This document shows positions 44,229 through 52,304 of a DNA stretch of 64,000 nucleotides, piece after piece. The stretch covers positions 1,116,001-1,180,000 of the forward strand of contig NZ_CP066339.1 of assembly GCF_016406125.1 (NCBI RefSeq). The letters run 5' to 3'. Numbering within the stretch: position 1 is the first letter of the stretch; each line of letters begins with the position of its first letter. Position numbers and translations under genes: made by a program. The DNA comes from Alicyclobacillus sp. SO9. Its GTDB lineage: Bacteria; Bacillota; Bacilli; Alicyclobacillales; Alicyclobacillaceae. A model generated the notes under the pieces. It was given only the letters and a program-made list of their open reading frames with translations, was not told the origin of the DNA and did not search any database.

Positions 44229-44244
44229 ATACGTATGGGGGTAT
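44229..44244 (+). promoter_or_regulatory. CsoR/CstR-like operator before the rhodanese gene
   Basis: ATACGTATGGGGGTAT has the ATAC...GGGGTAT arms and 16-base length of CsoR/CstR sites, 40 bases upstream of the rhodanese start. The left arm is imperfect. Confidence 0.5.
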
Positions 44245-44284: not shown

Positions 44285-44578
44285 ATGTGTCAAGAAATCA
44301 CCGCACCAGAATTTCAGTCAAAACTATTTCGTGGAGATGACATCTTCATGTTAGATGTCCGGGAAATTGAAGAGTATCGCTCCGGGCACGTAGAGGGCTC
44401 TGTGCTGATTCCCGTTGGTGTGCTGCCACACCTGATTCCAGATGTTGACAAGCAAAGAGAAGTGATTATCATGTGTCGAAGTGGCAATAGAAGCCAGGAA
44501 GCATGTCAAATTCTCCAGCAACGTGGTTTCACGAATGTAAAATCTCTGCAAGGCGGATTGACCGCTTTAAGTGCCTAG
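44285..44578 (+). CDS. Single-domain rhodanese (sulfurtransferase)
   Basis: A 97-residue rhodanese domain. The persulfide-forming Cys is in the loop MCRSGNRSQEA, and MLDVREIEEYRSGHVEGSVLIP is the standard N-terminal block (cited as LDVREIEEYRSGHV). ATG 44285 follows GGAGGA by ten bases. It moves sulfane sulfur between carriers. The upstream CsoR/CstR-like site and the nearby flavoprotein and rhodanese-lactamase fusion make it part of a persulfide-response group. Confidence 0.9.
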   Translation: MCQEITAPEFQSKLFRGDDIFMLDVREIEEYRSGHVEGSVLIPVGVLPHLIPDVDKQREVIIMCRSGNRSQEACQILQQRGFTNVKSLQGGLTALSA

Positions 44579-44724: not shown

Positions 44725-45318
44725 ATGAGGAAAACTGATGTCTTGGTCGTTGGCGGAGGTGTCGCAGGCTTAAGTTGCGCCTTGTATACCAGTAGGGCTG
44801 GCCTGTCGACTACAGTACTGGATACGGGTATGTCGCAACTCAAGAAAGTCAGTGAGTTGCATAATATTCCAGGATTGCCGAAGGGAATTTCGGGGGAAGA
44901 TTGGGTTGCTACTGCCCGAAGTCAGGCAGAAAATGCAGGTGCTGAGATTAGACAACTAGAGGCCACTGCGTTTGATTTAAAGCAAAGGCCCTACCAGGTC
45001 TTTACGAACTCTTTGGAAACAGGAGAGAAACTCTCCTTTGCGTCAGATTACGTTGTTATTGCAGTGAATCTCGGATATCCATTGCTTGAAGACATGGATT
45101 TGGGACTGGAAGTGAACGAGTTTGTACCCAGCAAGAAAATTCGAAAGGTTAAAAACATAACTTTTGAGGGGCGAACGACGAAGCCTGGGGTGTACATTGC
45201 GGGATTACTGGCTGACATCCCCAGCCAGACAGCCGTTTCATCCGGTCAGGGAACCTACGTAGGAGTTCAAATAGCCAGCGAAGCTTTGGGCAGGGCGTAT
45301 ATGTGGCACGATCGTTAG
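44725..45318 (+). CDS. Short FAD-dependent oxidoreductase (thioredoxin-reductase fold, no CxxC)
   Basis: A 197-residue protein with a FAD Rossmann motif (VLVVGGGVAGLSCALYTSRAG) and a thioredoxin-reductase-like C-terminal FAD block (TTKPGVYIAGLLADIPSQTAVSSGQG, in parts VYIAGLLAD and AVSSGQG). The whole NADPH-binding domain with the redox CxxC of true thioredoxin reductase is missing, although no frame break is seen. Short proteins of this kind occur beside sulfur-transfer genes. It may pass electrons between flavin and a partner such as the nearby glutaredoxin-like protein; that is inference. ATG 44725 has a purine-rich GAGAGGAG upstream. Confidence 0.8.
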   Translation: MRKTDVLVVGGGVAGLSCALYTSRAGLSTTVLDTGMSQLKKVSELHNIPGLPKGISGEDWVATARSQAENAGAEIRQLEATAFDLKQRPYQVFTNSLETGEKLSFASDYVVIAVNLGYPLLEDMDLGLEVNEFVPSKKIRKVKNITFEGRTTKPGVYIAGLLADIPSQTAVSSGQGTYVGVQIASEALGRAYMWHDR

Positions 45319-45493: not shown

Positions 45494-45509
45494 ATACCCC
45501 TTCAGGTAT
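45494..45509. promoter_or_regulatory. Third CsoR/CstR-like 16-mer (orphan)
   Basis: ATACCCCTTCAGGTAT, same length and ATACC/GGTAT arms as the two neighbouring sites, but located between convergent genes with no gene start close by. Could be a relic or act on an unrecognised transcript. Confidence 0.35.
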
Positions 45510-45560: not shown

Positions 45561-46697
45561 TTAGCCCGCGAGATGTTTCACAGCGCATCGGTTGGGGCCA
45601 ACTTCCAATTCTGAGCGCTCTGTTTCGGTTGGTGCATATTCACCCCGGTTAATTTGGACAATGGTTGTGTAGTTTGGCGGCGTCTGACCTGCCCTTTGAA
45701 CCATTTTGTCTGTAAAATCTGCTTCAGACATGTCTTGGAAAAACTCGTTGGATGAACGAATGTCAGAGAAAACGCTGCCTACGTAGCCTTCACTGGTAAA
45801 TTCACTTAGGTCAGCAAAGTGAGCGGGCAAGATAACAACGTCATCCGGAAGCGTGCTCAACTTATCACGAACGGTTTTGTAAAGCAGTTCTGACCATTCT
45901 TCGGCTTTACCACCCAGGTCAGGTCGGCCAATACCACTGACAAATACGGTGTCACCGGAGAGGAGATACTTGTTGTTTACCAAGAACGATACACTGCCAG
46001 GCGTGTGTCCGGGCGTAGGAATGGAAAGAACTTGCAGAGTTGCCTTGCCAAACTTGAATGTCTGCCCGTCTGTAAGGCCGTTAAATTCCATGTCTGATCC
46101 CTGCATCTCAGAAGCAGAAATCCAGTACTCTGCATTCTCTTGGTTCGCAAGGACCGGTCCACCGGATATATGGTCCGCATGACAATGCGTGTCAAGCACG
46201 TGGCGCACCTTTGCACCCTTATCTGCTGCAAGTTTTGAATAATAGTCGTCGTGACGTCCTGCGTCAACAACAATCGCTTCGTCACCGGAAACCAGCATAT
46301 AGGACAGGCAACCTTTGGCTGGACGAATGACCTGCAGAAGTTCCAAATCATCTTGATTAGACTTCGTCACAGGCACATTGTAGTAAAATTCGCTCCATGC
46401 CTGCATGCCGCCTTCGACATTCAGGACCTTATATCCACGTTCATCAAGAATCTGTGATGCTTCTTTACTGGCATTGCCTTTGGCACAAATGACCGCTACT
46501 TCTTTATCGGTAGGGATTTGCGGATAAGCTTCAGGTCCATTTTCCTTCAGCTTTGAGGTCTGAATGTTGAGCATCTCTGCATTTTGATGCTTAACATGCC
46601 ACTCATCAAAGGCTGCCACTCCACGAACATCCAAAATGACGGTAGGGTTTTTCTCCAATCGTTCATGAAGTTCCTGTGGGGTGATAGAAACTACCAT
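45561..46697 (-). CDS. Rhodanese-metallo-beta-lactamase fusion (persulfide dioxygenase-like)
   Basis: A 378-residue two-domain protein. Residues ~5-110 are a rhodanese domain with the active Cys in VICAKGNASKEA. Residues ~125-375 are an ETHE1/CstB-type metallo-beta-lactamase domain with HCHADHISGG, GHTPGSVSF, SGDTVFVSGIGRPDLGG and LPAHFAD, the iron-site pattern of persulfide dioxygenases. It would oxidise glutathione-, bacillithiol- or CoA-persulfide to sulfite, or handle thiosulfate. The rhodanese-first order differs from the CstB lactamase-first order. ATG 46697 has AAAGGAG upstream; the open frame further up is a shadow. A perfect CsoR/CstR-like palindrome lies 36-55 bases upstream. Confidence 0.92.
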   Translation of the reverse strand: MVVSITPQELHERLEKNPTVILDVRGVAAFDEWHVKHQNAEMLNIQTSKLKENGPEAYPQIPTDKEVAVICAKGNASKEASQILDERGYKVLNVEGGMQAWSEFYYNVPVTKSNQDDLELLQVIRPAKGCLSYMLVSGDEAIVVDAGRHDDYYSKLAADKGAKVRHVLDTHCHADHISGGPVLANQENAEYWISASEMQGSDMEFNGLTDGQTFKFGKATLQVLSIPTPGHTPGSVSFLVNNKYLLSGDTVFVSGIGRPDLGGKAEEWSELLYKTVRDKLSTLPDDVVILPAHFADLSEFTSEGYVGSVFSDIRSSNEFFQDMSEADFTDKMVQRAGQTPPNYTTIVQINRGEYAPTETERSELEVGPNRCAVKHLAG

Positions 46698-46732: not shown

Positions 46733-46752
46733 TTATACCCCATGGGGTATAA
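46733..46752. promoter_or_regulatory. Perfect 20-bp palindrome, CsoR/CstR-like operator
   Basis: TTATACCCCATGGGGTATAA lies between the divergent rhodanese-lactamase gene and the Sec-glutaredoxin gene, 37 bases from each start. The ATACCCC/GGGGTAT core matches the type of site bound by CsoR/CstR family repressors, which in the CstR case sense persulfides. One repressor could control both genes. Confidence 0.75.
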
Positions 46753-46789
46753 TTGCAAGGGGTGAACAAAATTGTTTGGAGGAGATTCC

Positions 46790-47035
46790 ATGAAAAAACC
46801 TGTTATTATGTACGTTATACCGCTCTGACCCCAGTGCAAACGCGCTAGGCGGTTCCTTTCGGAGAAAGGAATTTTATTTGAAGAGAGAAACATCTTGTTT
46901 AATAAGGCACACCGCAAAGAATTTGAACAGTTGACAAGTGTCATGGCAATACCTGTAACCGTATTTGGAGACAGGGTGGTGGTCGGTTACAACTTTGCCG
47001 AGTTTCAAGCGGCCGCGGACTATATTGGGTACTAA
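46790..47035 (+). CDS. Glutaredoxin-like selenoprotein (UxxC; in-frame TGA at 46826)
   Basis: An 81-residue thioredoxin-fold protein if the TGA at 46826-46828 is read as selenocysteine. Before it: MKKPVIMYVIPL; after it PQCKRARRFLSEKGILFEER, and later the cis-proline strand MAIPVTVFGDRVVVGYNFAEF. The TGA is at the first position of the CxxC of NrdH/glutaredoxins (UPQC), flanked by perfectly conserved family context on both sides, with no other break. Ribosome binding site GGAGGAG precedes ATG 46790. A SECIS-like hairpin follows the TGA. It is divergent from the persulfide dioxygenase-like gene, sharing a CsoR/CstR-like operator, so a role in reducing persulfides or polysulfides is likely. Alternative: a cysteine gene killed by TGT/TGC to TGA. 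Confidence 0.8.
46826..46871 (+). promoter_or_regulatory. Bacterial SECIS element candidate
   Basis: Downstream of the TGA, TTCCTTTC (46853-46860) and GAAAGGAA (46864-46871) form a perfect 8-bp stem with the loop GGA. The loop starts with GG and lies 32 bases after the TGA. This agrees with the bacterial SECIS rule as I recall it: a short apical loop with G in the first two positions, 16-37 bases from the UGA. SelB would bind it to insert selenocysteine. Confidence 0.75.
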
Positions 47036-51137: not shown

Positions 51138-51339
51138 CAATTACACAGTTCTTTCACACGTTACTTTTACACACTGCTTCGCGATGTCGTCTTGCTCAAG
51201 AATTTATGAATCTTAATACTCAGAGCAGGCAGGATTTCGACAGCATCTGCAGAATAAGAGCGTATATGCACAGGAGACGTTGCAGAAGGGGCATCTTTGG
51301 CCCTAAATAGACATGGGTTGCTTTTCAACATCAAGCATA
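51138..51339. other. Non-coding gap before the riboswitch
   Basis: About 200 bases with no recognisable gene. The promoter for the riboswitch transcript must lie in its right part. Confidence 0.5.
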
Positions 51340-51420
51340 ATTTGTTGGCAAACCCCAGGAAACTGAGGGACGCAAAGCTATGGGCCTAAAGCACTTTGTG
51401 CAAGGGTTGCCAGGTTGCAC
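51340..51420 (+). promoter_or_regulatory. Cyclic-di-GMP-I riboswitch (GEMM)
   Basis: The core reads TTGGCAAACCCC, a CAG-GAAA-CTG tetraloop hairpin, GAGGGACGCAAAGC, then ATGGGCCTAAAGC, a short hairpin and GGGTTGCCAGGTTGC. These match the c-di-GMP-I aptamer nearly base for base: the GGCAAA and GGGACGCAAAGC blocks, the GNRA loop and its CCTAA receptor. It precedes the ferric-reductase-like operon and is followed by a terminator hairpin. Confidence 0.95.
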
Positions 51421-51430
51421 TATTGTGATA

Positions 51431-51530: not shown

Positions 51531-52304
51531 ATGGCACGTCCACCAAACAAACCAAAACGCAAGTCAAAGAAGGATACTGAGGCCTCGCCGCTGGCTACTA
51601 ATATTATTGTTATTGCAATTGCCATTCCTCTGATTTCTATGATAAGTCTTTACAGCCTTCAAAGTGACAAATGGGTTCACGGGGAGACCTTCTGGCTGAT
51701 AAGCCGCGCTGCTGCCGTGGCGGCTTTCGTGGTTCTTACCTTAATCGTTGTGCTTGGGTTGCTCTTGAGCCATCCAAGAAACAAAGACACGTGGCGCTGG
51801 ACTGTGCACCTTTTGTCATGGCACCAGTCGTTGATGGCAGCTTTGTTCATCCTCATTGGTTTGCACTTATTCTTCACTCTGTCTGACCCGAAGTCAGGTG
51901 TTACATTGCAGCAGGTATGGTTTCCGATTCACGCCCGCTATTATCCTTTGGCCATGGTAGCAGGGGCGGTTGCAGTCTACGGTCTCCTTATCATCATGAT
52001 AAGTCTGGGATTGAGGAGAGTCACAAAAATGTGGTTACCATTGCACAGAATGTCTTGGCTTGTATGGGGACTGGTTTTTGCACATGGGGTTTTTGGCGGA
52101 ACAGATACTGTGCGCTTACAGATGATGTATTGGATATCTGCAGGGGTTGTGGTTGTCACCTTTTACTGGCGCCATTGGGTCAACAATCAAAGGCGTCGAG
52201 CCAATCAAACGCCGCAGCCGGTTCCAGAGAGCACAGGCACTCCGAGCCATGCTCCTGATTTAGCCAGTTCTACAATTTCTAATCCGAAAGGAGGGTCTAT
52301 ATGA
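51531..52304 (+). CDS. Ferric-reductase-like transmembrane cytochrome
   Basis: A 257-residue protein with six or so membrane helices. A lysine-rich N-tail precedes helix 1; histidines inside helices occur at VHLLSWHQSLMAALFILIGLHLFF (cited: LLSWHQSLMAALF and LIGLHLFF) and in WLPLHRMSWLVWGLVFAHGVFGG (cited: LPLHRMSW and FAHGVFGG), the bis-heme ligand pattern of the ferric reductase-like/MsrQ family. It would carry electrons across the membrane through two b hemes. A Pro/Ser/Thr tail follows. ATG 51531 has AAGGAGGG upstream. It is the first gene after the c-di-GMP riboswitch and overlaps the next gene by four bases. Confidence 0.85.
   Translation: MARPPNKPKRKSKKDTEASPLATNIIVIAIAIPLISMISLYSLQSDKWVHGETFWLISRAAAVAAFVVLTLIVVLGLLLSHPRNKDTWRWTVHLLSWHQSLMAALFILIGLHLFFTLSDPKSGVTLQQVWFPIHARYYPLAMVAGAVAVYGLLIIMISLGLRRVTKMWLPLHRMSWLVWGLVFAHGVFGGTDTVRLQMMYWISAGVVVVTFYWRHWVNNQRRRANQTPQPVPESTGTPSHAPDLASSTISNPKGGSI

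What the first reader, a model, noticed from the sequence alone, without database searches (positions are those of the whole stretch)
46790..47035. Probable glutaredoxin-like selenoprotein with SECIS hairpin
An 82-codon frame encodes a thioredoxin-fold protein interrupted only by TGA at the exact first-Cys position of the CxxC motif (UPQC). Both sides keep family context (MYVIPL before, CKRARRFL and the cis-Pro AIPVTVFG after). Thirty-two bases after the TGA is a perfect 8-bp hairpin with loop GGA, which fits the bacterial SECIS rules. The gene has a strong ribosome binding site and a palindromic operator. Sec-containing glutaredoxins are known in some bacteria, but one in the persulfide regulon of an Alicyclobacillus-like organism would be new as far as I know.
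Basis: partly seen in the sequence, partly recalled or inferred. Interest (0 to 1): 0.92.

Follow-up and report, generated by a model that had tools for sequence, protein, structure and literature searches.

The report
Selenocysteine glutaredoxin-like protein
This small gene encodes a real glutaredoxin-like protein whose active site uses selenocysteine (read from an internal UGA stop codon), conserved in at least 15 relatives of this acid-loving Bacillota bacterium and probably switched on by reactive sulfur.

Summary
ORF 46790-47035 encodes an 81-aa glutaredoxin-fold protein with one in-frame TGA at the first-Cys position (UPQC), followed by a hairpin that meets the published bacterial SECIS rules. 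An unbiased protein search found 17 relatives with the TGA at the same codon. All 18 TGA genomes, this one included, encode SelB. The five codons forming the hairpin are synonymously frozen in Sec orthologues (TTC CTT TCG nnG AAA) and lost in three Cys orthologues. The same UGA+SECIS gene occurs in Alicyclobacillus, Sulfoacidibacillus and Desulfosporosinus. The "persulfide regulon" idea is supported by inference: a CsoR/CstR-type operator overlaps the promoter in 10 of 18 orthologues. All unlinked exact copies of that site in this genome lie by rhodanese or TauE genes, and one near-match precedes a CstR-like regulator. Sec-containing glutaredoxins and "UXX-star" selenoproteins are already known, so this is a new, previously unclassified clade of a known kind. 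It scores below every curated UXX-star model. UGA decoding, substrate and regulator were not tested experimentally.

The parts
46790..47035 (+). Selenocysteine-containing glutaredoxin-like protein gene, 81 aa, UxxC active site
46826..46828 (+). In-frame TGA, predicted Sec13 codon (first position of UPQC)
   Evidence: TGA in all Sec orthologues, TGC in three Cys orthologues
46835..46837 (+). Codon of resolving Cys16 of UxxC
   Evidence: invariant
46853..46871 (+). SECIS apical hairpin TTCCTTTC-GGA-GAAAGGAA
   Evidence: rules from PMC13188914
46778..46784 (+). Ribosome binding site GGAGGAG
   Evidence: direct reading
46734..46751 (.). CsoR/CstR-type palindromic operator TATACCCCATGGGGTATA
46748..46753 (+). 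Putative -10 box TATAAT overlapping the operator
   Evidence: direct reading; same overlap upstream of orthologues
45561..46697 (-). Divergent rhodanese + metallo-beta-lactamase (persulfide-dioxygenase-like) fusion protein; shares the intergenic operator region
   Evidence: ETHE1 and BpPRF among best PDB matches
44285..44578 (+). Single-domain rhodanese, with a one-mismatch operator copy at 44229-44244
45494..45509 (.). Exact second match to the operator pattern (ATACCTGAAGGGGTAT on the minus strand), no assigned gene

Best explanation
The gene makes a small glutaredoxin-like selenoprotein. Transcription starts at a promoter overlapped by a CsoR/CstR-type operator and is probably released from repression when a CstR-like regulator is modified by persulfides or polysulfides (inferred). 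On the mRNA, SelB with GTP and Sec-tRNA-Sec binds the conserved hairpin 24 nt after the UGA and inserts Sec at codon 13 (inferred from conserved sequence and a complete SelA/SelB/SelD/tRNA-Sec set). The Sec13 selenolate attacks a disulfide, persulfide or polysulfide, and Cys16 resolves the intermediate (inferred from the Grx fold and UxxC motif). The likely role is to reduce sulfane sulfur, or sulfur carriers such as rhodaneses, in sulfur-rich habitats. The electron donor, a low-molecular-weight thiol or a thioredoxin-reductase-like flavoprotein, is unknown. The confidence given is for the selenoprotein reading; for the sulfane-sulfur role and CstR control taken together it is about 0.5.
For: Glutaredoxin fold across the TGA. 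Own genome complete, with SelB over cut-off, tRNA-Sec 63.9 bits with anticodon TCA, SelD with its own in-frame TGA GUGCK and SelA 559 bits. Protein search of 101 genomes: 17 other genomes carry the same ORF with TGA at the same codon, 3 close orthologues have TGC. All 18 TGA genomes have SelB against 48 of 101 overall (hypergeometric 2e-7 ignoring ancestry). The SECIS codons F-L-S-x-K show codon identity 1.00 in 13 Sec orthologues against mostly 0.2-0.6 elsewhere, and are absent in Cys orthologues; an AAA to AGA change keeps the stem by a wobble (direct reading). Three Sec genomes end the same ORF at an ordinary TGA stop, so UGA is not reassigned. Operator with at most 1 mismatch upstream of 10 of 18 orthologues against 0-1% of background windows. 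Exact operator sites elsewhere lie at TusA-rhodanese/TauE, rhodanese, and rhodanese/thioredoxin genes, and a one-mismatch site precedes a CsoR-family regulator lacking the CsoR His. E. coli glutaredoxin 1 and thioredoxin 2 are induced by and remove sulfane sulfur (PMC6831875); CstR homologues repress rhodaneses and sulfite exporters (PMC10318464).
Against: No protein-level evidence of Sec insertion. The SECIS stem is nearly invariant, so there is almost no compensatory covariation; the support is codon freezing. The 19-nt hairpin alone is -7.1 kcal/mol, and the longer fold is significant in only some orthologues. Eight of 18 orthologues lack an evident operator. One-mismatch operator hits genome-wide (26) are only about twice the reversed-pattern control (14). 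The persulfide-dioxygenase neighbour is not conserved, and Desulfosporosinus copies sit by molybdenum-cofactor genes instead.
Confidence: 0.95

Rival explanations
1. Pseudogene or sequencing error: a Cys glutaredoxin gene broken by a TGC/TGT to TGA change.
For: Most Grx genes have TGC/TGT there, including three close orthologues.
Against: The same TGA codon occurs in 17 other genomes of several genera, with purifying selection downstream (49-57% protein identity with near-random synonymous codons) and a frozen hairpin.
Confidence: 0.01
2. UGA is reassigned to another amino acid (code 4-like) or simply leaks, without selenocysteine.
For: The frame is open if UGA is a sense codon.
Against: UGA serves as the ordinary stop of the same ORF in L056, L059 and L070, and the own genome has the full Sec machinery with a Sec-type UGA in selD.
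Confidence: 0.02
3. It is a Sec glutaredoxin, but its role is general thiol or metal redox work (copper, arsenic, formate-dehydrogenase maturation) and the operator is bound by a copper- or formaldehyde-type DUF156 repressor rather than CstR.
For: CsoR-type repressors use similar G/C-rich palindromes; three CsoR-like regulators exist in the genome, two of them directly upstream of predicted copper ATPases. Desulfosporosinus copies lie beside mobA/fdhD/moaA-like genes.
Against: Exact operator copies in this genome flank rhodanese and TauE genes, not copper ATPases; rhodanese, DsrE, TauE or selD genes lie near several orthologues.
Confidence: 0.3

Closest known systems
Sec-containing glutaredoxin (PF00462, UxxC), e.g. 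the Clostridium (Alkaliphilus) oremlandii selenoprotein Grx (PMC13188914 table; Kim 2011 cited there)
   Same: Glutaredoxin fold, UxxC motif, bacterial SECIS after the UGA, Cys homologues. Nearest PDB sequences are glutaredoxins 7c10/7c12.
   Different: Only moderately similar in sequence to solved glutaredoxins (45 bits to 7c10); different lineage; linked to a CstR-type operator; physiological partner unknown.
NCBIfam NF041212 Uxx-star glutaredoxin-like (seleno)protein and UXX-star families 1-3 (NF041114, NF041211, NF047338)
   Same: Short Grx-like selenoproteins with U at the first active-site position.
   Different: Window protein scores 45.6 bits against a cut-off of 66 for NF041212 and far below the others, so it is not formally a member.
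TIGR02196 YruB-family glutaredoxin-like protein
   Same: Best-scoring model (56.8 bits), all 24 aligned members match at 1e-5 or better.
   Different: Below its cut-off of 88.55; that family is known as a Cys protein (own knowledge).
CstR/CstB persulfide regulon of Staphylococcus and relatives
   Same: CsoR-family repressor, rhodanese, persulfide-dioxygenase-rhodanese protein and TauE-like exporter genes with G/C-rich palindromes (PMC10318464, PMC5480029).
   Different: Here the target genes are scattered and include a selenoprotein; rhodanese precedes the MBL domain in the window protein.

Membership tests
Bacterial selenoprotein | In-frame UGA at a redox Cys position with Cys homologues | tested here: met
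Bacterial selenoprotein | SelA, SelB, SelD and tRNA-Sec in the genome | tested here: met
Bacterial selenoprotein | bSECIS: loop 3-9 nt, stem 4-16 bp, G in first two loop bases, 16-37 nt from UGA to loop, MFE at most -7.5 kcal/mol (PMC13188914) | tested here: met
   loop GGA, 8 bp, 32 nt; 55-nt region -19.2 kcal/mol; the isolated 19-nt hairpin is -7.1
Bacterial selenoprotein | Sec demonstrated in the protein | not testable with these tools
   needs 75Se labelling or mass spectrometry
Glutaredoxin (PF00462) | Profile match over gathering score | tested here: met
   52.6 bits against 22.9 (Sec read as Cys)
NF041212 Uxx-star | Score over curated cut-off 66 bits | tested here: not met
   45.6 bits
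TIGR02196 YruB | Score over curated cut-off 88.55 bits | tested here: not met
   56.8 bits
CstR-type persulfide regulon | G/C-rich palindromic operator shared with rhodanese and sulfur genes | tested here: met
CstR-type persulfide regulon | CsoR-family regulator with two Cys and no copper-ligand His | tested here: inconclusive
   C1:1520189 regulator has CKDVV and NMQYC without the His of HTRGC seen in the copper-type paralogues; not shown to bind this site
CstR-type persulfide regulon | Response to persulfide | not testable with these tools
   needs expression or binding assays

The most novel reading that the evidence does not exclude
A selenoenzyme dedicated to sulfane-sulfur (persulfide/polysulfide) homeostasis: a Sec-glutaredoxin clade induced through a CstR-type operator in Alicyclobacillales, many of them from sulfur- and iron-rich acidic habitats, where Sec gives faster or oxidation-resistant depersulfidation.
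Probability: 0.45. Interest if true: 0.7.

Novelty: new member of a known kind. Interest (0 to 1): 0.52.

Why it matters
Ordinary gene callers stop at the UGA and miss this protein. The Sec/Cys exchange within one clade (Sec in A. ferrooxydans, Cys in two genomes of its genus) offers natural pairs for asking what Sec adds. If the operator link is right, it ties selenium use to reactive-sulfur defence in extreme acidophiles, a role not named for glutaredoxin selenoproteins in the reviews read here.

Tried and rejected
A scan of viral contigs for TGA plus SECIS found nothing. One hit, L103 (Prosthecobacter), has no Grx frame and is probably chance. Conserved linkage to the persulfide dioxygenase was tested and not found. 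Pseudogene, sequencing error and UGA reassignment were rejected. Structure prediction was not run, since sequence already gives the fold.

Full report
What is there. The frame 46790-47035 (+) has ATG, a ribosome binding site GGAGGAG and 81 codons plus TAA, with one TGA at codon 13. Read as Cys, the product matches Pfam Glutaredoxin over its gathering score, with the match running through the TGA. The nearest solved structures are glutaredoxins 7c10 and 7c12.

Is UGA decoded as Sec? The own genome (5.29 Mb, 2 contigs, rated 100% complete) has SelB above the curated cut-off, a tRNA-Sec with anticodon TCA, SelA and SelD, the last with its own in-frame UGA in GUGCK. A protein search, blind to the hairpin, over 101 genomes found the same ORF with TGA at the same codon in 17 other genomes and Cys codons in three close orthologues. 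Two of the 17 (L035/L036) belong to a more distant Grx subgroup with the same motif and hairpin. Every TGA genome has SelB, whereas only 48 of 101 do overall; the hypergeometric value is 2e-7, which ignores shared ancestry. In three Sec genomes the same ORF ends at an ordinary TGA, so UGA is not reassigned in general.

The SECIS. The hairpin 46853-46871 meets the published rules (PMC13188914): triloop GGA, 8-bp stem, 32 nt from UGA to loop, and a fold of -19.2 kcal/mol for the 55-nt region. Among 13 non-redundant Sec orthologues the codons for F-L-S-x-K are TTC CTT TCG nnG AAA without synonymous variation at shared residues (one AGA, which keeps the pair as a wobble; one GGC at the variable residue), while other conserved residues mostly share codons in 20-60% of pairs; the three Cys orthologues use other codons. 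This is RNA-level selection inside a coding region. Because the stem barely varies, classical covariation cannot be shown.

Distribution. A pattern scan of named genomes (UGA plus hairpin) found the gene in Alicyclobacillus ferrooxydans, A. tolerans, Alicyclobacillus sp. SP_1, Sulfoacidibacillus thermotolerans, many Desulfosporosinus and unnamed Bacillota, plus more distant Grx-like proteins in an Acidobacteria MAG and a Deltaproteobacteria MAG. In the tree the close set forms one supported clade of 20 rows (96/93), with Cys forms nested at two places, so Sec/Cys exchange probably happened at least twice, though inner forks are weakly supported. Within the order, 19 of 59 genomes have the gene, 16 with TGA and 3 with Cys. 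One TGA copy, in Alicyclobacillus sp. SP_1, also has a TAG and may be decayed.

Regulation. The perfect palindrome 46734-46751 overlaps a TATAAT box. A site of the same form, with at most one mismatch, lies 44-75 bp upstream of 10 of 18 orthologues including all three Cys forms; only 0-1% of background windows have one. In the own genome, exact matches to ATACCNNNNGGGGTAT lie at the Sec-Grx, at 45494-45509 in this window, at a TusA-rhodanese/TauE pair, at a rhodanese, and at a rhodanese followed by a thioredoxin/glutaredoxin-like protein; one-mismatch sites lie before the window rhodanese and before a CsoR-family regulator. That regulator lacks the His found in the copper-type paralogues; its best PDB match is 7mq1, deposited as CsoR and, from memory, the pneumococcal persulfide sensor CstR. 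CsoR-RcnR operators are G/C-rich pseudo-palindromes, and CstR proteins repress rhodaneses and sulfite exporters (PMC10318464). The one-mismatch hits are only about twice the control, so only the exact sites and the cross-species conservation carry weight.

Mechanism. Shown: gene, conserved UGA, SECIS-like codon freezing, machinery, operator-like site. Inferred: SelB-dependent decoding, Sec13/Cys16 chemistry, CstR control, and sulfane-sulfur reduction as the role. The last has precedent: E. coli glutaredoxin 1 and thioredoxin 2 are induced by polysulfide through OxyR and reduce sulfane sulfur (PMC6831875).

Novelty. Sec glutaredoxins and the UXX-star families are known (PMC13188914). The window protein falls below every curated cut-off, so it is a new, unclassified member of a known kind. 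No paper in the held library linked Alicyclobacillus or Desulfosporosinus to it by title and abstract, but most subscription papers are not held.

Noticed in passing
own genome C1:2651037-2651234 (L054): A second glutaredoxin-like ORF with TGA at the first-Cys position (TSTUPYC), a likely second UXX-star type selenoprotein with a different downstream sequence.
   Followed up: partly
own genome C1:3770106-3771035 (L048): selD itself has an in-frame TGA (SGUGCK), so selenophosphate synthetase is a predicted selenoprotein.
   Followed up: partly
45494-45509: An exact copy of the operator pattern with no assigned gene, downstream of the TrxR-like and persulfide-dioxygenase ORFs; it could drive an unannotated or antisense RNA.
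   Followed up: no
44725-45318: A 197-aa FAD-only protein resembling the FAD half of thioredoxin reductase, without the NADPH domain, between the rhodanese and the Sec-Grx.
   Followed up: no
51337-51422: c-di-GMP-I riboswitch, 70.5 bits, about 110 bp upstream of a predicted membrane protein ORF at 51531.
   Followed up: no
L066 and L071: In Sulfoacidibacillus thermotolerans (L066; same locus as the named L107) and a MAG of the same genus (L071) the Sec-Grx lies next to a SelD-like gene (read by eye) and near a DsrE-type gene; DsrE was confirmed in L066.
   Followed up: partly
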